Shown here: piece after piece, positions 10,406 to 19,872 of the stretch
How positions within the stretch are numbered: the stretch's first letter is position 1
How the letters are laid out: each line of letters begins with the position of its first letter
NCBI RefSeq assembly: GCF_000336635.1
Contig: NZ_AOLY01000005.1
Coordinates: forward strand, 167,758-231,757
Reading direction: 5' to 3'
Origin: Haloarcula japonica DSM 6131
Lineage (GTDB): Archaea; Halobacteriota; Halobacteria; Halobacteriales; Haloarculaceae
DNA length: 64,000 nt
The notes under the pieces: model-generated
Database searches by the model: none
The model's input: only the letters and a program-made list of their open reading frames with translations
Told to the model about the DNA's origin: nothing
Position numbers and translations under genes: made by a program

Positions 10406-10534
10406 TCAGTCAGCGCCGAGGCAGCCGACCCACGAGCAGTCGGTGCAGGTCTCGATGCCGTTCGCTGTCGTCGTCTCGCCGCGACAGCGCGGGCAGACGG
10501 ACCCGACCTCTGGCGACTGGACGGACTTACTCAT
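10406..10534 (-). CDS. Small zinc-ribbon protein (42 aa), overlaps aldehyde dehydrogenase stop
   Basis: 42 residues with CPRC (14-17) and CTDC (30-33), ending SWVGCLGAD. Its ATG lies inside the last codons of the aldehyde dehydrogenase gene, an 8-nt overlap (ATGAGTAA), so it is probably translated by coupling from that gene. Too short for most gene callers. The chemistry is unknown; a structural zinc ribbon is the only visible function. The tight overlap suggests a link to the dehydrogenase or simply a shared transcript. Confidence 0.7.
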
Positions 10535-12050
10535 CGGTGATGATGTCCGCCGACAGGCCCTGTGCCATCTCGATGTCCTTGGAGTTGTTCAGCGTCCAGG
10601 CGGTGCGCTCGGTGACGGCCTCGATGACCTCGCGGCCGCTCGGGAGGCCGTTGCCGGACTTCTTGACGCCGCCGAAGGGCAGGTGGACCTCCGCGCCGAT
10701 ACACGGGAGATTGCCGTAGGCGAGGCCGATTTCGGCCTCGTCGCGGAACTGGTTGATCTGGCGGTAGTCCTCGGAGATGATAGCGCCGGCGAGGCCGTAG
10801 TCAACGCTGTTGTGCATCTCCAGCGCTTCGTCGAAGTCACCCGAGTACTCAAGCAGCGCGACGTGGGGGCCGAACACTTCCTCGTTGATGCACCGCAGGT
10901 CCTCGTCGTAGTCGACCTCGTAGACGAACGGGCCGACCCAGTGACCCTCCTCGTGGCCGTCGGGAATCTCTTCGGCACCGAGGTCGGCGCGGTCGACGAG
11001 CACGTTCGCGCCCTCCTCACGGGCGAGGTCGTTGTAGCGCTTGAACTTCTCGACCTGGTCGTCCTCGATGAGCGGCCCCATGAAGGTGTCTTCCTCCAGT
11101 GGGTCGCCGACGGCAATGTCTTCGGCGACGTCGACGAACCGTTCCTTGAACTCGTCGTAGAGGTCCTCGTGGACGATGAGGCGCTCCGAGGAGACACAAC
11201 GCTGGCCGGTCGTCTTGAAGCTAGACATCACAGCCGAGTGAACGGCGATGTCGAGGTCGGCTTCCTCCGTGACGATGACAGCGTTCTTCCCGCCCATCTC
11301 GCAGGCGGCGATCTTGCCAGGCTCGCCGCCGACCTTGGAGGCGATCTTGTGGCCGACTTCGGCGCTCCCGGTGAAGAGGACCGTCTCGACGCGGTCGTCC
11401 TCGACGATGGCGTTGCCGGCGTCGCCGTAGCCCTGCACGAGGTTGAAGACGCCGTCTGGGATGCCCGAGTCCTCGAACATCTCGGCGATGATATGGGCAC
11501 ACCACGGGGTCTGTTCGGCGGGCTTCCAGACGACGGTGTTGCCCTCGACCAGCGTCACTGCGAGGTGCCAGAACGGGATGGCGACCGGGAAGTTCCACGG
11601 GGTGATACAGCCGACGACGCCTTTCGGCTTGCGCCGCATATAGGCGTCCTTGCTGGCAATTTCCGACGGTACCACGTCGCCGTGGGGGTGGCGGGCGTTG
11701 CCGGCGGCCCACTCGACCATATGCCAGGACTCGGTGACGTCGGCCAGCCCTTCGCTGATCTCCTTGCCACACTCCATGGTGACGATCTCGCCGAGTTCCT
11801 CGTGGCGGTCACGCAGCTCGTGGTAAATGTCCCAGAGGTACTCCGCACGGTCGATGTGCGAGAGCGAGCGCCACTCGTCGTAGGCGTCCTCTGCCGCGGC
11901 CAGCGCGCGGTCGACATCGGCTTCGGTTCCGCGGTGGAACGAGGCGAGTGCCTCGCCGGTGGCCGGGTTCTGACTTGTGAACGTTTCGTCGCCGGTGCCT
12001 GTCGTCCAGTCACCGTCGATGTAGTGTCGACGTGAGTCGTCTGTACTCAT
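10527..12050 (-). CDS. NAD(P)-dependent aldehyde dehydrogenase, probable 1-pyrroline-5-carboxylate/semialdehyde dehydrogenase
   Basis: 507 residues from the ATG at 12050 (MSTDDSRRHYIDGDW); the open frame further upstream runs through the promoter. ALDH motifs: PWNF (Asn153), FTGSAEVG, general base Glu251 in EMGGKN, nucleophile Cys285 in GQRC, EEVFGP. Context (proline dehydrogenase, racemase, shared motif) points to oxidation of the glutamate semialdehyde/P5C made by proline dehydrogenase, giving glutamate. The sequence alone allows other semialdehydes. A TATA-like AACATATT on the minus strand (12077-12084) is about 30 nt from the ATG, so the transcript is probably leaderless. Confidence 0.88.
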   Translation of the reverse strand: MSTDDSRRHYIDGDWTTGTGDETFTSQNPATGEALASFHRGTEADVDRALAAAEDAYDEWRSLSHIDRAEYLWDIYHELRDRHEELGEIVTMECGKEISEGLADVTESWHMVEWAAGNARHPHGDVVPSEIASKDAYMRRKPKGVVGCITPWNFPVAIPFWHLAVTLVEGNTVVWKPAEQTPWCAHIIAEMFEDSGIPDGVFNLVQGYGDAGNAIVEDDRVETVLFTGSAEVGHKIASKVGGEPGKIAACEMGGKNAVIVTEEADLDIAVHSAVMSSFKTTGQRCVSSERLIVHEDLYDEFKERFVDVAEDIAVGDPLEEDTFMGPLIEDDQVEKFKRYNDLAREEGANVLVDRADLGAEEIPDGHEEGHWVGPFVYEVDYDEDLRCINEEVFGPHVALLEYSGDFDEALEMHNSVDYGLAGAIISEDYRQINQFRDEAEIGLAYGNLPCIGAEVHLPFGGVKKSGNGLPSGREVIEAVTERTAWTLNNSKDIEMAQGLSADIITDE

Positions 12051-12086
12051 GGTAGGTGCTGTACGCGTCCCCCACCAATATGTTCC

Positions 12087-12098
12087 ACCGTCCATGGT
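12087..12098 (-). promoter_or_regulatory. Putative operator copy 1 (aldehyde dehydrogenase promoter)
   Basis: On the minus strand reads ACCATGGACGGT, two nt upstream of the AACATATT TATA-like box. This is the position of the upstream activating site for Bat at the bop promoter. Copies 2 and 3 share 11-12 of 12 bases. Confidence 0.55.
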
Positions 12099-12156
12099 CA
12101 GGGGGCCGCCGCTGTTTGCCGTGGTCCGGTGGCCCGTTGGAAAAACGGCCGAATCT

Positions 12157-12168
12157 ACCATGGTCGGT
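12157..12168 (+). promoter_or_regulatory. Putative operator copy 2 (regulator gene promoter)
   Basis: ACCATGGTCGGT on the plus strand, about 20 nt upstream of a TATA-like CTTTATTG (about 12189-12196) for the HTH_10 gene. Exactly 70 bp from copy 1, close to an integral number of helical turns. A separate inverted repeat (GGCCcGTT/AACGGCC) lies between at about 12131-12150. Confidence 0.5.
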
Positions 12169-12248
12169 GTTTCACTTATGAACCGCACCTTTATTGGCGT
12201 CCATACCGTGACCACTCCTAACATCCCCCTATCTGGAGGGTGCCCAAT

Positions 12249-12965
12249 ATGAGCGAAGCGCAACTAGAAGACTGCGGACTCCAACTGACTCTGAGCATCT
12301 GGCATCCTGACTGCTGGACGCTCGAAGTGACCGACAAGACAGCGGCCGGCTTGTTGGCTCACGGCGTGTACAACACCCAAAACGGTAGCGTGAAGGGCCT
12401 GTTCACGGCGTACGCCGACAGTATTAGTGACGTCGAGGATCTCATTGACGCGACTCGTGATTCGTCCCTGACCGACTCCGTACTGGAGTTGCGCGAGCGC
12501 CACGGCGCGACTGGCACAGGCTCGTCGCCGGGCAACACGACCCGGGAGCTGTTCGTCGAGTACGATCCGGACAACACCATCAGCGACAGTCTGCTCTCGC
12601 GCGGATTTATCCACAACGACCCGGTTCGGGTCCGGCACGGTCGCGAACACTGGCCGGTGTTTTTCCCGGACTCCCGCGATGAAGCCGAGTCACTCCTCGA
12701 CGAGATCCGCGAGGAGCAATCGGCCGATATCGAAGTGACCCGAATCACGTCCGCCGGCGGCGGCAACCCAGGGGAGCTTCGCCGGATGGACCGGCTCTCG
12801 GATAGTCAGCGCGAAGCCTTTGAGCTCGCCCGACAGGAGGATTACTACGCGTGGCCACGTGGTATCTCGACGCGCGAACTCGCGTCGAAGCTCGGCGTTT
12901 CGAAGACAACGCTGCTCGAACACCTCCGGAAAGCTGAGGCGAAACTGCTCGACCCGGACCAGTAG
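12249..12965 (+). CDS. Bat-type HTH_10 transcription regulator
   Basis: 238 residues. The start is the ATG at 12249, chosen because GGAGG lies 10 nt upstream; an in-frame GTG at 12240 overlaps that site. The N-terminal about 170 residues form the sensor-like domain found in haloarchaeal HTH_10 proteins. The C-terminus (LSDSQREAFELARQEDYYAWPRG, then STRELASKLGVSKTTL, then EHLRKAEAKLL) is the HTH_10 DNA-binding domain. It is divergent from the aldehyde dehydrogenase and ends one nt from the convergent proline dehydrogenase stop. Likely controls the surrounding proline genes; ligand unknown. Confidence 0.88.
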   Translation: MSEAQLEDCGLQLTLSIWHPDCWTLEVTDKTAAGLLAHGVYNTQNGSVKGLFTAYADSISDVEDLIDATRDSSLTDSVLELRERHGATGTGSSPGNTTRELFVEYDPDNTISDSLLSRGFIHNDPVRVRHGREHWPVFFPDSRDEAESLLDEIREEQSADIEVTRITSAGGGNPGELRRMDRLSDSQREAFELARQEDYYAWPRGISTRELASKLGVSKTTLLEHLRKAEAKLLDPDQ

Positions 12966-12966
12966 T

Positions 12967-13803
12967 TCAGCTCAGCACGGCCCGGACGGCGAACAGCGCG
13001 TTTTCCTTGCGCTCGCGGACGCGCCGGTAGAAGTAGGAGAACCACTTGTCGCCGTAGGGAATGTACTGCCACATCGGGACGCCCTCTGCGGCGAGGTCGC
13101 GCTGTTCGTCGTCGCGGACGCCCATCAGCATCTGCACTTCGTAGTCGGTGCCGTACTCGTCGTGGAGGTCCTTCGCGTGGTCTATCATCGCCGGGTCGTG
13201 GCTGCCGACGGCGACGCCGCCCTCGAACTCCTCGAACATCAGTTCGAGACAGTCCCGATAGGCTTCGTTGACGCGCTCTTTCTTCTTATAGGAGACCTTT
13301 TTGGGCTCGGAGTAGGCCCCCTTGACCAGTCGGACCTTCCCGGGAAGGGGCGCGAGTCGTTCGAGGTCCTCGGGCGTCCGCTTGAGGTTTGCCTGCGTAC
13401 AGACGCCGACGCCGCCCTCGTGTTCCGTGACGAGCCGCTCGTACGCATCGAGGGTGACGTCGGTCGTGGTGTAGTCCTCCATATCGACCCAGACGAAGAC
13501 GTCGCGGTCGTCACCCGCCGCGACGATTCGTTCGAGGTTTTCGACGAACACGTCGTCGCCAACGTCGAGGCCGATCTGTGAGGGCTTGACTGAGATACAG
13601 CAGTCGAGACCGCTTCTGTCGATTTCCTTTATCAGCTCGATGTACTGGCCTGCGTCCTCGTCGGCTGGCTGGCGCTCGTCGTAGTGTTCACCTAACAGAT
13701 TCAGGATGCCCTTGACACCGTCGTCGTTGAGCGACGCGACGTGGTCGAGCGCCCCCGGCGCTGTCTCCCCGGCGACGAAGTTGTTCGCTATCGGCGGAAT
13801 CAT
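12967..13803 (-). CDS. Proline dehydrogenase
   Basis: 278 residues from the ATG at 13803 (MIPPIANNFVAGE). FAD-dependent TIM-barrel enzyme oxidising L-proline to 1-pyrroline-5-carboxylate. Motifs: KGAYSEPK (the family's V(K/R)GAY), ISVKPSQIGLD, and the C-terminal YFYRRVRERKENA with the substrate-binding YxxRRxxE pair. It is monofunctional, so a separate dehydrogenase is needed for P5C; the 10527-12050 gene is the candidate. It starts 71 nt downstream of the racemase stop on the same strand, with a TATA-like GATATAG (about 13818-13824) before it. Confidence 0.92.
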   Translation of the reverse strand: MIPPIANNFVAGETAPGALDHVASLNDDGVKGILNLLGEHYDERQPADEDAGQYIELIKEIDRSGLDCCISVKPSQIGLDVGDDVFVENLERIVAAGDDRDVFVWVDMEDYTTTDVTLDAYERLVTEHEGGVGVCTQANLKRTPEDLERLAPLPGKVRLVKGAYSEPKKVSYKKKERVNEAYRDCLELMFEEFEGGVAVGSHDPAMIDHAKDLHDEYGTDYEVQMLMGVRDDEQRDLAAEGVPMWQYIPYGDKWFSYFYRRVRERKENALFAVRAVLS

Positions 13804-13853
13804 TATCGAAACTACGCCACTATATCGGCCTAAACGCACCCCCTACCAAAAAA

Positions 13854-13865
13854 ACCATCCATTGA
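13854..13865 (-). promoter_or_regulatory. Weak operator-like copy before proline dehydrogenase
   Basis: The minus strand reads TCAATGGATGGT, 9 of 12 bases matching ACCATGGACGGT. It lies about 30 nt upstream of the TATA-like box, further than at the other sites. May be chance. Confidence 0.25.
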
Positions 13866-13874
13866 GAGTTGAAA

Positions 13875-14846
13875 TCAAGCGAGAGTGAAACTGCCGAGCG
13901 TATCGTCGTCGTCCCGGTAAAACGTGTGCTCGCCCGTAATATGCGCTGTGCCAGAAACGACCGGGCTGGTCACGGTGACACCGTTGTCGACCCGTGTGTC
14001 GGTGATATACCCCTCGAACGTCGACCCCACCGGGCCAGTCACTTCGACACGCTCACCGATAGCCAGGTCGCCATCGACGTGATGGAGCGTCAACCGCGCA
14101 CACGTGCCTGTGCCACAGGGGGACCGGTCGACGGAGCCGTCGGCGAACACCACACAGCTCCGGTCGCCGTCACCGCTGGCGGTGAGTTCGACTGCTGAGA
14201 CAGTCACCGTCGAACCGGTGACTGGGTCCTTGGGTCCGGCGTGGTTGATTGCTCGTCGGAGTTTCAGTGCGGGCTCGATACACTGCGTGGCGTCCTCACG
14301 GTCGAGCGTGACGCCCAGGCTGTCAGCGTCGACGACGGCGAAGTAGTTTCCCGAATAGACGATACGAGCCTCGACCGGGACGCCGTCCTGTTCGACGGTA
14401 ACCGTCTCACAGACGTAACTGTCGACGTTTTCGAACGCAACGCGGCGGACGATTCCATCTACTATCTCGACTGTCACGTCGACCAGTCCGGCGGGAGTTT
14501 CGACGGTCAGTTTGGGCGACTCGGGAAGGTCACCCCGTTCGATGAGTGCGGTGACGACCCCGATGAGGCCGTGGCCGCACATATCAAGATAGCCGTCAGT
14601 GTCCATGAAAAACACCCCGAGGTCGGCCCGGTCGGTTGGCACCGGGACCGCCCCGAACATATCCGCGTGCCCGCGGGGCTCCTGCATGAGGAGTTTTCGG
14701 ACGCCGTCAGCCGTGGCTTTGAACCGGTCGCGTTTCTCCCGGACGGTTGCTCCAGCGAGCGTGTCGACCTCGATACCGTCGAGGACGATGCGCGTTGGTT
14801 CCCCGCCCGTGTGCGTGTCTACCGTGGTAAACTCCGTTCGTTCCAT
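13875..14846 (-). CDS. Proline racemase / 4-hydroxyproline 2-epimerase family
   Basis: 323 residues. Both catalytic cysteines of the racemase/epimerase branch are present: Cys90 in DMCGHG and Cys244 in SPCGTGTC. In the related dehydratases one Cys is replaced by Ser or Thr, so dehydratase activity is unlikely. It would invert proline or hydroxyproline at C-alpha using the two-thiol mechanism. The N-terminal THTGGEPTR is also conserved. With proline dehydrogenase next to it, roles in bringing D-proline or trans-4-hydroxy-L-proline into breakdown are both plausible. It is divergent from livJ across 140 nt, and a TATA-like ATTAATA is at 14887-14893. Confidence 0.9.
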   Translation of the reverse strand: MERTEFTTVDTHTGGEPTRIVLDGIEVDTLAGATVREKRDRFKATADGVRKLLMQEPRGHADMFGAVPVPTDRADLGVFFMDTDGYLDMCGHGLIGVVTALIERGDLPESPKLTVETPAGLVDVTVEIVDGIVRRVAFENVDSYVCETVTVEQDGVPVEARIVYSGNYFAVVDADSLGVTLDREDATQCIEPALKLRRAINHAGPKDPVTGSTVTVSAVELTASGDGDRSCVVFADGSVDRSPCGTGTCARLTLHHVDGDLAIGERVEVTGPVGSTFEGYITDTRVDNGVTVTSPVVSGTAHITGEHTFYRDDDDTLGSFTLA

Positions 14847-14930
14847 AGCCGTAGCGATACTCTATGCGGCAAACGCGTTCCAGAAGTATTAATTGACGGC
14901 TTTCCGTATGCGGTTGAGAACATGGTGCCT

Positions 14931-14942
14931 ACCATGGACGGT
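14931..14942 (+). promoter_or_regulatory. Putative operator copy 3 (livJ/racemase intergenic)
   Basis: ACCATGGACGGT on the plus strand, identical to copy 1. It lies 7 nt before a TATA-like TTATAC (14950-14955), which is 32 nt from the livJ ATG. Just upstream, CATGGT-gcct-ACCATG (14921-14936) makes a perfect 6-bp inverted repeat. The divergent racemase promoter is about 40 nt away, so one site could serve both genes. Confidence 0.55.
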
Positions 14943-14986
14943 GACAGGGTTATACAGGGACTTACGAAAAAGGATATCAGTATACC

Positions 14987-16294
14987 ATGAACGACAATGA
15001 CAACCGCTCGATTGACAGGCGAAGCGTAATCAAAGCCGCTGCGAGTGCCGGACTCGTCGGTCTCGCCGGCTGTTCCGGTGGTGCTCCCGAAGACGGTGGT
15101 GGGGGTGACGGTGGTGACGGCAGTGACGGCGGTGACGGCGAATCGACGGATTCCTCGACGGACTCCGGGTCCGAAACATACACCATCGGGATGGTTGACA
15201 GCCTCTCCGGCTCACTATCGGCCTTCGGTCAGCGGAACCAGCGCGGCAAGGAAATCGCGCTCGACGACGTCAATTCCGTCGGCGTCGGTGGCGGCGAACT
15301 GGCGATCTCACAGCAGGACGACCAAAGCACGAGTCAGGGCGGAGTCAGTGCAGCCCAGACACTCGTCAATCAGGAAGAGGTTCCGCTGCTCATCGGTACT
15401 GTCGGGAGCGGCGTCAGCACGGCTATCCACGAAAGCGTCGTCCAGAACACCGACGTCGTCCAGATCAGCCAGAACAGCACTAGCCCGAACCTGACGAACT
15501 TCCCGGACCTGCTCCGGATGCCGCCGGCCGGCAAGGCACAGGCTGAGGCTATCTCCACACTCCTCGACGAAGACGGCAACGAATCCGCCGCGCTGGCCTG
15601 GATTAACAACGATTACGGCCAGTCCGTGGGTGAGGCCTTCATTGATGCCTACGATGGGGAGATCGTCTACAACGAACCTCACGACCAGGGCCAGTCTTCG
15701 TATAGTAGCACTATCTCCTCGATGTCCGACACCGACGCTGACGCGTGGGTGTTCATCACTTACCAGCCCGAGTTCGCGACGATGTCCCAAGAAGCGTTCG
15801 ACCTGGGCGTCACTGACCAGGCCGCCTGGTACGGCGGTGACAGCGTCAAGGGCCCGAAGGTCCTCGAATCAGCACCCGAGGGCAGTCTTGACGGAATGAA
15901 AGCCGTGGTTCCGAGCGTCCCGCAGGACGCCGAGAACTACCAGGCGTTCGTCTCGGAGTTCGAAGAGCGCTTCGGCGAGGAACCCACGTCGTGGTCGGCC
16001 TACGCCTACGACGCTGTGGTCGTCAGCGCACTCGCTATCGAAGCCGCAGACGAGTTCACCGGCTCGGCGCTCATGGAGGTCGTGCGGGACGTGACGCGAC
16101 CCGAGGGTGAGGAGGCGACCACCTACGAGGCCGCCCACGAGATTCTGGCCAACGGTGGCTCGCCGTCGGACGTGGACTACACCGGCGTGAGCGGCCCAAT
16201 CGACCTCGACGAAAACGGTGACCCGGTCGGGTTGCTGCAGGTGTTTGAAGTCGTGGACCACGCGTACGAATCCGCCGGCTTCATCGAGGGCTAA
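14987..16294 (+). CDS. LIV-type ABC transporter substrate-binding lipoprotein
   Basis: 435 residues. Twin-arginine signal (RRSVIK) followed by the lipobox LAGC, so it is Tat-exported and lipid-anchored; then a Gly/Asp-rich flexible linker (about 28-60) as in many haloarchaeal binding proteins. The remainder is a periplasmic-binding type I fold (IGMVDSLSGSLSAFG, GTVGSGVSTAI, WINNDYGQSVG) of the branched-chain amino acid/amide class. The substrate is probably an amino acid; proline or hydroxyproline is inferred from its divergent neighbour and the shared operator-like motif. First of five genes in one transcript. Confidence 0.9.
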   Translation: MNDNDNRSIDRRSVIKAAASAGLVGLAGCSGGAPEDGGGGDGGDGSDGGDGESTDSSTDSGSETYTIGMVDSLSGSLSAFGQRNQRGKEIALDDVNSVGVGGGELAISQQDDQSTSQGGVSAAQTLVNQEEVPLLIGTVGSGVSTAIHESVVQNTDVVQISQNSTSPNLTNFPDLLRMPPAGKAQAEAISTLLDEDGNESAALAWINNDYGQSVGEAFIDAYDGEIVYNEPHDQGQSSYSSTISSMSDTDADAWVFITYQPEFATMSQEAFDLGVTDQAAWYGGDSVKGPKVLESAPEGSLDGMKAVVPSVPQDAENYQAFVSEFEERFGEEPTSWSAYAYDAVVVSALAIEAADEFTGSALMEVVRDVTRPEGEEATTYEAAHEILANGGSPSDVDYTGVSGPIDLDENGDPVGLLQVFEVVDHAYESAGFIEG

Positions 16295-16324
16295 CGCGGC
16301 CACAACCCTTTCCCCATCTTATCA

Positions 16325-17242
16325 ATGGCGCAGATATTACAGTACCTGGCAAACGGGCTCGTTTTCAGTAGTATCATCATCCTCGGGAGTATCGGGCTCT
16401 CGCTGGTCTACAGCATCGCTGACTTCGCGAACTTCGCACACGGCGATACGATGACGCTGGGTGCCTACGGGGCATTCGTCGCGTTCGGCGTATTCGGCGG
16501 TCTCGGTGGCACTGTTCTCGGTCTCCCAATCGGATTCTTTATCGCCTTGGTAGTCGGGATGGCGCTGGCGGCCGCCGTCGCCGTTCTGACCCACATCCTC
16601 GTGTACAAGCCCCTCGATACGGACTCGATCGGGTTGCTCATCACGAGCATCGGCGTGGCGTTCGTCTACCGCGCAGTGCTACAGGCGTCCTTCGGGACGG
16701 ACTTCCTGCAGTACGATATCAGCCGTAGCGGGCCGATTCCGGTGCTGCTTGACACACTCGACGTTGCAGTGACACAGCGAGACGTCGCGATTATCGTCAG
16801 CGCGGCGGTCCTCGTCGCCGGCCTGCATCTCCTGCTCCAGCGGACGACGCTTGGCCGGAAGATGCGCGCGACGGCTGACAACCCTGATCTCGCACGCGTG
16901 AGCGGTATCCGAACTGACCGCGTCATCCTCGTCATGTGGGTCGTCGGCAGTGCGCTGGCCGCCGCTGGCGGCGTTTTCCTCGCGCTGTACAGCCAACTTG
17001 ACCCGCGAATCGGATTCAACATCCTGCTGGTCGTGTTCGCCGCGGTCATCCTCGGCGGCATCGGTTCGGTGTACGGGGCGATGCTCGGCGGCCTTCTCAT
17101 CGGGATGCTCCACGAACTGACGCCGCTGCTTAGCGATGTCGGCCTTCCGATCAGCAACGCCTACGCGCCGGCTGTCGCGTTCGTCATCATGGTCGCGGTC
17201 CTGCTTGTCAGGCCCCGCGGCATCGCAGGTGATATGACATGA
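16325..17242 (+). CDS. LIV-type ABC permease (LivH family)
   Basis: 305 residues, about eight hydrophobic segments. Typical LivH features: IADFANFAHGDTMTLGAYGAF near the N-terminus and the coupling-helix region LGRKMRATADNPDLARVSGI. Forms the membrane channel with the next gene's product. The stop overlaps the next start by 4 nt (ATGA), consistent with coupled translation. Confidence 0.93.
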   Translation: MAQILQYLANGLVFSSIIILGSIGLSLVYSIADFANFAHGDTMTLGAYGAFVAFGVFGGLGGTVLGLPIGFFIALVVGMALAAAVAVLTHILVYKPLDTDSIGLLITSIGVAFVYRAVLQASFGTDFLQYDISRSGPIPVLLDTLDVAVTQRDVAIIVSAAVLVAGLHLLLQRTTLGRKMRATADNPDLARVSGIRTDRVILVMWVVGSALAAAGGVFLALYSQLDPRIGFNILLVVFAAVILGGIGSVYGAMLGGLLIGMLHELTPLLSDVGLPISNAYAPAVAFVIMVAVLLVRPRGIAGDMT

Positions 17243-18348
17243 GCACGCTTGATGTCGGTACGTATTCGCCACGCGAGAAGGGCGTCGTAGGACTGCTCGG
17301 CGTGCTTGGCGCGCTCCTGCTCCTGGCGGTCGTCACTGGCTTCCTCGCCCCGGCGTACCTGCTGTATCTCGTCGGGCTGTCGGCGATGTACATGCTTCTT
17401 TCGATGGGCTTGAACGTCCAGTGGGGGTACGGCGGCATGATCAACTTCAGCGTCGCGGCGTTCTTCGGCCTCGGCGCGTACGGGACCGCGTTGCTGACGG
17501 CGTCCGGGTCGCCGATCTCCGGCGGCGTCAGTCCCGTCGTTGCGCTATTTGGCGGTCTCGGCCTGGCCGCGGTGCTCGCAGTGATTATCGGGTACCCGAC
17601 GCTGAAGCTCCGCGACGACTACCTCGCAATCGCGTCGCTGGGTCTTGCAGAGGTCGTCCGTATCTTCATCCTCAACGAGTCACAGTGGACGGCGGGTAGC
17701 GCCGGCCTGACCGGTATCCCGCTGTTCTTCTCCGACTGGCCCGTGCTCGGCGACTTGACCTACCCCTACGTCTTCTACGCGGGCGGGACGCCGGTGTTCA
17801 ACATGAGCCAATCGGTCGTGACCAGTTTCCTGAACGTCGTGCTGGTCTCGGTCATCGTCGCGGCCGTCTACCTGTTCCTCCGGCGCATCCATCAGTCGCC
17901 GTGGGGTCGCGTCCTGCGGACGATCCGGACCGACGAGGACCTCGCGGAGACGCTGGGCAAGAACACGTTCGCGTTCAAGATGCAGGCGTTCGTCATCGGA
18001 AGCCTCATCATGGCGCTTGCGGGCGTGTTCTACTCCCATCTCGTGCTGTTCGTCAGCCCGCAGGACCTCCAGCCGATCACGACGTTCTACGTCTGGGTCG
18101 CCGTCATCCTCGGCGGCACCGGCAGCGACCGCGGCGCGATGCTAGGCGGGTTCACAATCGTCGCCATCCAGCAGGGGACGCGCTTCCTGACCGACACCGG
18201 CGCGCTGCCCATCGGTGCTGCCCCGCTTCGGCTCATGCTGGTCGGCTTGCTGATCATCTTTATCGTCAGGCTCCGCCCGGAGGGCATCCTCCCGCCGGAG
18301 CGCGAACTCATCTGGCCCGACTCGCTGGGCGGTGGTCGCGATGAGTGA
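17239..18348 (+). CDS. LIV-type ABC permease (LivM family)
   Basis: 369 residues, about ten hydrophobic segments. LivM features: MGLNVQWGYGGMINFSVAAF, the YPTLKLRDDYLAIASLG loop, and the coupling motif WGRVLRTIRTDEDLAETLGKN. Partner of the LivH-type permease. The stop overlaps the next start by 8 nt (ATGAGTGA). Confidence 0.93.
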   Translation: MSTLDVGTYSPREKGVVGLLGVLGALLLLAVVTGFLAPAYLLYLVGLSAMYMLLSMGLNVQWGYGGMINFSVAAFFGLGAYGTALLTASGSPISGGVSPVVALFGGLGLAAVLAVIIGYPTLKLRDDYLAIASLGLAEVVRIFILNESQWTAGSAGLTGIPLFFSDWPVLGDLTYPYVFYAGGTPVFNMSQSVVTSFLNVVLVSVIVAAVYLFLRRIHQSPWGRVLRTIRTDEDLAETLGKNTFAFKMQAFVIGSLIMALAGVFYSHLVLFVSPQDLQPITTFYVWVAVILGGTGSDRGAMLGGFTIVAIQQGTRFLTDTGALPIGAAPLRLMLVGLLIIFIVRLRPEGILPPERELIWPDSLGGGRDE

Positions 18349-19153
18349 GCAGTCGCTCGTCTCAGACGGTCCCATTCTAGGGAAGGACGATCCGGTTCTT
18401 CGGGCTGAAGGACTGGAGAAACGCTTCGGCGGCCTCGTCGCGACGGACGACGCGTCCATCGAGGTCGAACGCGGCACCATCACGGGTCTCATCGGCCCGA
18501 ACGGGGCCGGCAAGTCGACGCTGTTCAATCTCGTCTCGGGCTTTTACGAGCCCGATGCCGGCTACGTCTCGGTCAACGGCGTCGACGTGACCGGACGGAA
18601 GCCCCACCAGATCGCCGATCAGGGGATGATCCGGACGTTCCAGACGCCGCGGAAACCGGAGGGGATGACCGTTCGGGAGGCGCTGCTGGTGGGACCACAC
18701 AACCAGACTGGGGAATCGATTATCCCGCTGTTCACCTCGCCAGACACCGTCGAACAGGAGGAGCGGCGTTCGCTGGAACAGGCCCAGGAGATGCTCGAGC
18801 GGTTCGAAATCGGCGACCTGGCGACCCAGCCCGCGACGGACCTCTCTGGCGGGCAGATGAAGCTGGTCGAACTGGCCCGCGGGATGATGGCCGAACCCGA
18901 CCTGCTACTGCTGGACGAGCCCGTCGCCGGCGTCAACCCCGTGCTGGCAGACAAACTGGCCGGGTTCATCGAGGAACTCAACGAGGAGGGGATCACCTTC
19001 CTCATCATCGAACACGACATGAACTTCATCATGCGGCTCGCTGACCCGATTATCGTCCTCAATCAGGGGAGTGTCCTCGTCGAGGGACCGCCCGAGGCGG
19101 TCCGGAGCGACGAGCGCGTCATCGACGCCTACCTGGGAGGGCCGTCGGAATGA
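18341..19153 (+). CDS. LIV-type ABC ATPase (LivG family)
   Basis: 270 residues from the ATG at 18341. Walker A GPNGAGKS, LivG-specific FQTPRKPEGMTVREALLVG, signature LSGGQ in TDLSGGQMKL, Walker B LLLLDEPVAGVNP, switch His in IIEHDMNFI. Energises import together with LivF. Overlaps livM by 8 nt and livF by 4 nt. Confidence 0.95.
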   Translation: MSEQSLVSDGPILGKDDPVLRAEGLEKRFGGLVATDDASIEVERGTITGLIGPNGAGKSTLFNLVSGFYEPDAGYVSVNGVDVTGRKPHQIADQGMIRTFQTPRKPEGMTVREALLVGPHNQTGESIIPLFTSPDTVEQEERRSLEQAQEMLERFEIGDLATQPATDLSGGQMKLVELARGMMAEPDLLLLDEPVAGVNPVLADKLAGFIEELNEEGITFLIIEHDMNFIMRLADPIIVLNQGSVLVEGPPEAVRSDERVIDAYLGGPSE

Positions 19154-19872
19154 CCGACCCGATACTCACCGTCGACGGCGTCGACAGCGGCTACGGCGAA
19201 GTGCAGGTGCTCGACGACCTCTCGCTGACCCTCGGCGAGGGCGAAATCGCCTGTCTCGTCGGCCCGAACGGGGCCGGCAAGTCCACCGTTCTCAAGACGG
19301 TATTCGGCATGCTGGAGCCCTGGACCGGCTCGGTACGTCTTGGCGACCGCGAAATCGGCGGGATGGCCCCCGAAGACATCGTCCGTATCGGTGTCGGCTA
19401 CGTCCCACAGACGGAGAACGTGTTCGGCTCGCTGACTATCGACGAGAACCTCCGGATGGGCGGGGTCGCTCGCGACGACGGCCTCGACGAGGTCGTGGCC
19501 GAACTGTACGACCGGTTCCCCATCCTCGACGACAAACGCACCGCGAACGCGAAGACGCTCTCGGGCGGCCAGCGGCAGGTGCTCGCGTTCGCTCGCGCGC
19601 TCGTGATGGAGCCCGACGTGTTGCTCATCGACGAGCCGAGCGCCGGACTGGCACCGAACACCGCAAAGGAGGTGTTCGACGACGTTGAGACGGTCAACGA
19701 ACTCGGCACGTCGATCCTGATGGTCGAGCAGAACGCCCGCGAAGGGCTGGGAATCTCCGACCGCGGATTCGTCCTCGATCAGGGGACCGTCAAGTTCGAG
19801 GGCGAGGCGGACTCGCTGCTCGACGACCCCGAGGTGTCCCGGCTGTATCTCGGCGGCGAGTCGCGCCGCTGA
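19150..19872 (+). CDS. LIV-type ABC ATPase (LivF family)
   Basis: 240 residues. Walker A GPNGAGKS, LivF-typical GVGYVPQTENVFGSLTIDENL, signature LSGGQRQV, Walker B LLIDEPSAGLAP, switch region VEQNAREGL. Last gene of the transporter operon; 116 nt without a gene follow it. Confidence 0.95.
   Translation: MTDPILTVDGVDSGYGEVQVLDDLSLTLGEGEIACLVGPNGAGKSTVLKTVFGMLEPWTGSVRLGDREIGGMAPEDIVRIGVGYVPQTENVFGSLTIDENLRMGGVARDDGLDEVVAELYDRFPILDDKRTANAKTLSGGQRQVLAFARALVMEPDVLLIDEPSAGLAPNTAKEVFDDVETVNELGTSILMVEQNAREGLGISDRGFVLDQGTVKFEGEADSLLDDPEVSRLYLGGESRR

What the first reader, a model, noticed from the sequence alone, without database searches (positions are those of the whole stretch)
10406..19872. Self-contained proline/hydroxyproline uptake and breakdown module
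Proline dehydrogenase, a two-cysteine proline racemase/hydroxyproline epimerase (Cys90, Cys244), an aldehyde dehydrogenase, a regulator and a complete five-gene LIV-type importer lie together. LIV importers are usually assigned to branched-chain amino acids; context suggests proline or hydroxyproline instead. Genes for the later hydroxyproline steps (D-amino acid oxidase, deaminase) are absent here, so D-proline or proline use may be the real role.
Basis: partly seen in the sequence, partly recalled or inferred. Interest (0 to 1): 0.55.

Follow-up and report, generated by a model that had tools for sequence, protein, structure and literature searches.

The report
Haloarchaeal proline-use regulon with added racemase
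A salt-loving archaeon carries side by side an importer, a switch protein and enzymes that together look like a kit for taking up proline and burning it; related kits occur in many haloarchaea, and this genus has an extra enzyme in the middle that may let mirror-image (D-) proline be used too.

Summary
In detail: aldehyde dehydrogenase, HTH_10 regulator, proline dehydrogenase (ProDH), a Cys90/Cys244 proline racemase and a five-gene LIV importer lie at 10527-19872 of a Haloarcula genome. The racemase/ProDH pairing is in print: a Haloarcula japonica homologue acts on proline and hydroxyproline (PMC4364671).

Comparative evidence supports the proline reading of the importer and shifts the emphasis. 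(1) Its binding protein lies within 9 kb of ProDH and/or the regulator in 74 of 97 matches among 292 haloarchaeal genomes; 46 of those genomes lack a strong racemase. (2) A 14-bp palindrome, CCKMCCATGGTCGG, marks the control regions: 38 sites (up to 1 mismatch) in 19 of 20 later-fetched loci, none inside matched genes, 1.2 expected. Here CCATGGWCGGTG occurs three times per genome, all in this cluster. (3) The racemase sits between ProDH and importer in 12 of 15 sampled genus members and looks like an insertion; elsewhere it mostly accompanies a sodium symporter.

Most likely: an L-proline regulon extended to D-proline. Residues and missing linked genes argue against a full hydroxyproline pathway. 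No substrate was tested. New variant of a known kind; moderate interest.

The parts
10527..12050 (-). aldehyde dehydrogenase, candidate P5C (glutamate semialdehyde) dehydrogenase
   Evidence: PF00171 (within a longer ORF); below the cut-off of all 23 NCBIfam models listed, best are 2,5-dioxovalerate / alpha-KGSA dehydrogenases; found beside the LIV genes in 14 of 20 fetched loci
12088..12101 (-). operator 1, CTGACCATGGACGG (two mismatches to the cross-genus consensus), 37 nt before the ALDH start
   Evidence: distance by arithmetic
12154..12167 (+). operator 2, TCTACCATGGTCGG (one mismatch), 81 nt before the regulator start
12249..12965 (+). HTH_10 (Bat-like) transcription regulator, presumed proline regulator
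   Evidence: PF04967; relatives beside ProDH, SBP or racemase in other haloarchaea
12967..13803 (-). proline dehydrogenase, monofunctional bacterial type
   Evidence: PF01619; NF045947 215.6 bits, below its cut-off of 500; only one in the genome
13875..14846 (-). proline racemase, Cys90/Cys244, ProR-type pocket residues F64/F234
14928..14941 (+). operator 3, CCTACCATGGACGG (one mismatch), 45 nt before the LIV binding-protein start and 81 nt before the racemase start
   Evidence: racemase distance by arithmetic
14987..16294 (+). LIV-type substrate-binding protein
   Evidence: PF13458; closest solved sequences include amino-acid binding proteins
16325..17242 (+). LivH-type permease
   Evidence: PF02653
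17239..18348 (+). LivM-type permease
   Evidence: PF02653
18341..19153 (+). LivG-type ATPase (alternative start 18332)
   Evidence: PF00005 and PF12399
19150..19872 (+). LivF-type ATPase
   Evidence: PF00005; NCBIfam UrtE/LivF like, below cut-offs

Best explanation
This is a proline-utilization regulon. The LIV-type ABC importer brings in proline. ProDH oxidises L-proline to P5C, and the ALDH oxidises glutamate semialdehyde to glutamate. The HTH_10 regulator controls itself, the ALDH, and the divergent importer / racemase-ProDH promoters through a 14-bp palindrome lying next to the TATA region. In Haloarcula a Cys-Cys racemase was inserted between ProDH and its operator-bearing promoter, so that D-proline can enter the same route. 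Shown here: gene content, conserved neighbourhood, conserved palindrome and its spacing, and that the slot holds a racemase in most Haloarcula sampled but not in the other LIV loci read. Inferred: insertion (by parsimony), substrates, palindrome-regulator pairing, activation rather than repression, direction D to L.
For: The LIV binding protein is near a listed ProDH and/or regulator in 74 of 97 matches, and in 46 of the 64 SBP-bearing genomes without a strong racemase. Of 20 loci fetched, nearly all chosen because of that linkage: ALDH in 14, REG 19, ProDH 18, LIV genes 20, racemase 1 (a broken one). Palindrome: three exact CCATGGWCGGTG in 4.28 Mb, all here (reversed-pattern control 1; the word was written after seeing the copies); 49 of 71 module upstreams against 9 of 328 others at up to 2 mismatches; in the later-fetched set 38 sites in 326 kb, 0 inside matched genes, 1.2 expected; 38-46 nt before the SBP start in the 10 relatives where the start could be placed and in the window. 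Haloarculaceae H-GB1-1 keeps sites without an adjacent regulator and has a 73% regulator elsewhere. Haloferax volcanii ProDH and the neighbouring ALDH are induced together on L-alanine against ammonium (PMC6801745, section 7). A Haloarcula japonica racemase acts on proline and hydroxyproline (PMC4364671, section 21).
Against: No substrate, binding or growth data. 23 of 97 SBP matches were not near a listed ProDH/REG (those lists were cut at 150 rows each), and L262, one of them, has the importer without either. ALDH was not found in 6 of 20 loci, misses the cut-offs, and another ALDH of this genome scores higher on the P5C-dehydrogenase model (364.8 against 312.7 bits, neither over the cut-off of 659.65). 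The genome has two further regulator paralogues at E up to 1e-40 that could bind the same site. PMC6801745 calls the inducing signal unclear and suggests ammonium limitation rather than proline.
Confidence: 0.75

Rival explanations
1. Hydroxyproline module: the Cys-Cys enzyme epimerises trans-4-hydroxy-L-proline, and unlinked oxidase and deaminase genes finish the route.
For: A Haloarcula japonica homologue converts hydroxyprolines in 12-h assays (PMC4364671). The genome has two DHDPS-family genes and 30 DAO-family matches, six of them strong. The ALDH's best models are alpha-ketoglutarate-semialdehyde type, which would suit hydroxyproline.
Against: None of those genes is in the cluster, and both families are found in all 14 control genomes. 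F64/A218/F234 fits ProR; for contrast a Halopenitus racemase next to a DHDPS gene has Y64/H218, though it too keeps Phe at site 5. The LIV-ProDH core occurs without the racemase.
Confidence: 0.14
2. The importer is a general or branched-chain amino-acid importer that merely sits beside and shares control with proline genes.
For: LIV fold; the binding protein's best solved matches are branched-chain/amino-acid binding proteins. A LIV-type protein of Agrobacterium, Atu2422, serves GABA as well as proline, alanine and valine (PMC5924552 passages).
Against: Conserved linkage to ProDH and the regulator; 74.4 bits against a cut-off of 477 for the branched-chain binding-protein model NF011933. I made no search for branched-chain catabolic genes nearby.
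Confidence: 0.2
3. The racemase works in the L to D direction, making D-proline (or, via 5-hydroxyproline, D-glutamate as proposed for Thermococcus litoralis).
For: The reaction is reversible and PMC4364671 discusses this possibility.
Against: The gene lies between ProDH and the operator-bearing promoter of a catabolic cluster; the seven Pfam-identified neighbouring genes of the cluster include no evident D-proline consumer.
Confidence: 0.12
4. The palindrome is not an operator but part of leader ORFs: its ATG can open short frames that overlap the next start.
For: In the window ATG-GAC-GGT opens an 18-codon frame overlapping the SBP start, and a frame in phase with ALDH.
Against: The motif is palindromic, occurs in both orientations relative to the genes, and keeps a 38-46 nt spacing to SBP in the window and 10 relatives.
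Confidence: 0.05

Closest known systems
Haloarcula japonica proline racemase/hydroxyproline epimerase HjProR (PMC4364671)
   Same: Cys-Cys haloarchaeal ProR-like enzyme of the same genus, reported as often clustered with bacterial-type ProDH
   Different: In what I read (abstract, sections 20-23, find passages) the LIV importer, regulator, palindrome and racemase-free clusters are not treated; a figure of gene clusters (Fig. 1B) could not be seen. That HjProR is the orthologue of this gene was not checked
Haloferax volcanii HVO_1191 (ProDH) and HVO_1189 (ALDH) (PMC6801745)
   Same: Neighbouring ProDH and ALDH induced together; ALDH proposed as P5C dehydrogenase
   Different: In sections 7-8 no importer link, regulator or palindrome is named for them; the motif found there (AAAGACTAART) is a different one
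Bacterial put regulons (PutA with a sodium:proline symporter; recalled)
   Same: Proline import, ProDH and P5CDH under a dedicated regulator
   Different: Separate ProDH and ALDH, an ABC importer of LIV type, an archaeal HTH_10 regulator
Atu2422/Bra importer of Agrobacterium (PMC5924552, passages)
   Same: LIV-type import that includes proline
   Different: Mainly described for GABA; sequence relation to this SBP is weak (3ip5, E 8.6e-11; that 3ip5 is Atu2422 is recalled)

Membership tests
Proline racemase superfamily (PF05544) | family profile above cut-off | tested here: met
   251.6 bits against 27
ProR / HypE, Cys-Cys type | two catalytic cysteines in MCGH and DRSPCGTG | tested here: met
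   Cys90 and Cys244
Proline racemase equivalog NF010576 | curated cut-off of 556 bits | tested here: not met
   231.8 bits
ProR pocket (sites of PMC4364671) | Phe at sites 1 and 5 | tested here: met
   F64 and F234 (sites mapped by hand through the alignment)
Hydroxyproline epimerase HypE | His at site 4 and Cys/Tyr at site 5; HypE models | tested here: not met
   A218, F234; 130-210 bits against cut-offs of 376-450
Trans-3-hydroxyproline dehydratase | Cys-Thr (or Ser-Thr) pair | tested here: not met
   Cys90 and Cys244
Proline dehydrogenase (PF01619) | profile above cut-off | tested here: met
   101.1 against 27
P5C dehydrogenase TIGR01237 | curated cut-off of 659.65 bits | tested here: not met
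   313 bits; none of 7 matches in this genome reaches it, and the cluster ALDH ranks second
P5C dehydrogenase | activity on P5C | not testable with these tools
   context only
LIV (HAAT) ABC importer | binding protein, two BPD_transp_2 permeases, two ATPases | tested here: met
Branched-chain binding protein NF011933 | curated cut-off of 477 bits | tested here: not met
   74.4 bits
HTH_10 (Bat-like) regulators | PF04967 C-terminal domain | tested here: met
   58.9 against 23.1
Regulon under one operator | binding of the regulator to the palindrome | not testable with these tools
   co-occurrence only

The most novel reading that the evidence does not exclude
Haloarchaea share a dedicated proline regulon run by an HTH_10 regulator at a CCGACCATGGTCGG-type operator, with a LIV-type ABC importer specialised for proline and an ALDH that fills the reported missing P5C-dehydrogenase step. 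Haloarcula turned it into a D-plus-L-proline scavenger by inserting a racemase between ProDH and its operator, while other haloarchaea run a parallel D-proline unit (sodium symporter, small protein, racemase) under the same operator.
Probability: 0.45. Interest if true: 0.55.

Novelty: new variant of a known kind. Interest (0 to 1): 0.45.

Why it matters
It would give haloarchaea a defined proline pathway. A ten-genome survey found ProDH in seven genomes but P5C dehydrogenase in only one (PMC3102087, passage); a conserved ALDH under the same palindrome is a direct candidate for the missing step. It would also move a widespread LIV importer from branched-chain amino acids to proline and hand the field a testable regulator-operator pair in tractable Haloferax.

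Tried and rejected
Other regulon members in this genome: 50 sites within one mismatch of CNKMCCATGGWCGG against 37 for the reversed control; three of the 50 are the cluster's own. I looked at 17 of the other 47: 12 lay inside ORFs and 5 did not. One of the five, beside a DHDPS-family gene, overlaps the start of a long divergent ORF that I did not domain-search. None convinced me; 30 were not looked at.

Motif hits at offsets of 260 or more before SNF genes lie inside the coding start (MAMVGAMVGAG) and were excluded. The consensus was set from the loci, so those counts are partly circular. L243-L262 were fetched afterwards and are held out for the motif, but 19 of the 20 were picked because ProDH or the regulator is near, two are same-genus, and some come from genomes whose racemase locus helped set the consensus. 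At least 6 of the 9 'other gene' hits are the same physical sites seen from a divergent neighbour.

Rows dropped. Of the 80 loci, the counts use 31 (L059-L091 except four without a called racemase ORF, plus L094 and L129); 4 are close Haloarcula, and the rest, mostly bacterial, were not analysed. Nine unnamed loci (L046-L054) were left out and eight of them (all but L052) out of the tree: five are identical in racemase to named ones, but L046, L048, L049 and L052 are not. L116 was dropped from the tree because its stretch had a stop.

Leader-ORF reading: see rivals. Structure prediction was not run. The adjacency count uses ProDH and regulator lists cut by the tool at 150 rows each, so it is a lower bound.

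Literature: ten searches of the held PMC library, with capped listings, showed me nothing on a haloarchaeal LIV-proline link, this regulator or this palindrome. I read passages or sections of PMC4364671, PMC6801745, PMC3102087, PMC8305020, PMC5924552 and PMC4113996 only; subscription papers are not held.

On checking, I found that the Halopenitus racemase keeps Phe at site 5, that another ALDH scores higher on the P5CDH model, and that insertion is parsimony; I therefore lowered the novel case from 0.50 to 0.45 and raised the hydroxyproline rival from 0.12 to 0.14.
Full report
Identity of the source. The genome is a Haloarcula: a scan with the racemase alignment returned four named Haloarcula species at 88-92% identity, and a haloarchaeal Rio1 kinase lies next door.

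What is there. From 10527 to 19872 lie: ALDH (-), HTH_10 regulator (+), ProDH (-), racemase (-), and binding protein, two permeases and two ATPases (+). The racemase has Cys90 and Cys244. It and ProDH are the only members of their families in the genome. The 11 same-genus loci fetched carry the same block, three with extra DNA between regulator and ProDH (its ALDH query was one base out of frame, so only ALDH presence, not identity, is used).

What was already known. PMC4364671 (abstract, sections 20-23 and find passages) expressed a racemase of Haloarcula japonica. It racemised proline and also acted on hydroxyproline in long incubations, its low specific activity could not be measured, and the haloarchaeal enzymes were noted as a distinct subfamily often clustered with bacterial-type ProDH. 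So the racemase half of the finding is not new. I did not establish that HjProR is the exact orthologue of this gene.

The importer belongs to proline without the racemase. In 292 haloarchaeal genomes the binding protein matched in 95 genomes (97 places, E up to 1e-50), ProDH in 253 and the regulator in 163 (E up to 1e-40); a racemase-family protein at E 1.2e-44 or better is in 60 by my count of the rows. Of the 97 binding-protein places, 58 have a listed ProDH within 9 kb, 68 a listed regulator, 74 at least one and 52 both; 23 have neither. Among the 64 genomes with the binding protein but outside those 60, 46 show the linkage (ProDH and regulator lists cut at 150 rows, so lower bounds). In 20 regions fetched (19 chosen for the linkage), LIV genes were found in 20, REG in 19, ProDH in 18, ALDH in 14, and racemase in one as a broken copy. 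L262, chosen from the 23, has the importer alone.

The racemase looks like an insertion. Twelve of the 15 same-genus genomes in the sample (own included) carry the full racemase between ProDH and the importer. In G106 (L244) about 700 bp are missing from it, leaving its two ends; in G185 (L243, Haloarcula salina by matching contig length) a 399-bp gap resembles the window only in its non-coding ends; G228 (L245) has none there. Since the racemase-free order occurs in other families, insertion is the simpler history, but that is inference. In a 54-row tree the LIV-linked racemases (12 Haloarcula plus the Haloarculaceae H-GB1-1 copy) form one group with 100/99 support, among other haloarchaeal racemases; some deeper forks are weak. 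In 31 other named haloarchaeal loci with a called racemase ORF (three are second racemases of Haloarcula salina and H. mannanilytica; several are close Haloferax relatives), an SNF-type symporter protein is within 8 kb in 25, REG in 19, ProDH in 12 and ALDH in 7 (my own ORF caller and clustering, so lower bounds). Two members of the symporter cluster were tested and are PF00209. In 24 of the 25 a protein of about 100 residues accompanies it; the one tested has no Pfam match.

The palindrome. Reading the two control regions showed the same word three times. CCATGGWCGGTG occurs exactly three times in the 4.28-Mb genome, all here, against one hit for the reversed pattern (the word was chosen after seeing the copies). 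A looser 14-mer with one mismatch is not specific (50 against 37 control hits). In the genus the regulator-side word is exact in 11 of 11 relatives, the ALDH-side word in 10 of 11, the importer-side CCATGGACGG in 11 of 11 but its full 12-mer in 6 of 11; flanks are conserved too, so the genus alone proves little. Across other genera the consensus is a palindrome, CCKMCCATGGTCGG, perfect as CCGACCATGGTCGG in several; the window's own sites have one, one and two mismatches to it. In the 31 loci, 49 of 71 upstream regions of module genes have it within two mismatches against 9 of 328 other upstream regions; 25 of 31 loci have at least one within three, and five of the six without one also lack a called symporter, REG and ProDH. 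In the 20 later-fetched loci there are 38 sites within one mismatch, in 19 loci, none inside a matched gene, against 1.2 expected in first-order random sequence; the exception is L262, which lacks ProDH and REG. A site lies 38-46 nt before the binding-protein start in the 10 relatives where that start could be placed and in the window, and 27-37 nt before ALDH in 10 of the 14 loci with ALDH. In the window the ALDH site is 37 nt away with CATATT just after it. That position beside the TATA region suggests an activator, like the upstream element of the bacterio-opsin promoter (recalled), but this is inference. H-GB1-1 keeps sites at ALDH and at the racemase/importer promoter without an adjacent regulator, and its genome does hold a 73% regulator elsewhere, the next match being 44%.

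Proline or hydroxyproline. By the residues of PMC4364671, the window has Phe at sites 1 and 5 (F64, F234) and no His at site 4 (A218). A Halopenitus racemase next to a DHDPS-family gene has Tyr64 and His218, but keeps Phe at site 5 and matches solved proline racemases best, so it is only a partial control. DAO and DHDPS genes exist elsewhere in the genome, but both families are in all 14 control genomes. Some racemase loci of other genera have a DAO-family gene beside them (L074, L065), so D-proline or hydroxyproline oxidation may occur there. The racemase reaches no NCBIfam equivalog cut-off.

The ALDH. It misses the cut-off of all 23 models listed, best matches being 2,5-dioxovalerate and alpha-ketoglutarate semialdehyde dehydrogenases. 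No gene of the genome reaches the P5C-dehydrogenase model, and another ALDH (contig C39) scores higher on it, 364.8 against 312.7 bits. A survey of ten haloarchaeal genomes found ProDH in seven and P5C dehydrogenase in one (PMC3102087 passage). H. volcanii ProDH and its neighbouring ALDH were induced together, and that ALDH was proposed as P5CDH (PMC6801745, section 7). Here the ALDH shares the palindrome. P5C oxidation is the simplest role, but an alpha-ketoglutarate semialdehyde role is not excluded by sequence.

Verdict. Nothing about substrates is shown.

Noticed in passing
L244:7675-8157 (genome G106): The racemase in the slot is broken by a large internal deletion, while another racemase of about 50% identity sits elsewhere in the same genome (L052).
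   Followed up: partly
L046:9295-9582 and its protein cluster (32 loci, unnamed duplicates included): A protein of about 100 residues, without a Pfam match in the one member tested, accompanies the SNF symporter beside the racemase; possibly a small symporter subunit.
   Followed up: no
L084:9031-10978: Halopenitus racemase with Tyr64/His218 (but Phe at site 5) directly behind a DHDPS-family gene: possibly a hydroxyproline epimerase unit in a haloarchaeon.
   Followed up: partly
L074:11032-12255, L075:11000-12220, L087:11426-12625, L065:11015-12166: DAO-family oxidoreductase genes directly beside the racemase in some genera (L074 and L065 confirmed by Pfam; L075 and L087 by clustering with L074).
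   Followed up: partly
   Followed up: partly
genome G000, contig C39:363498-364892: An unlinked ALDH scores higher than the cluster ALDH on the P5C-dehydrogenase model.
   Followed up: no
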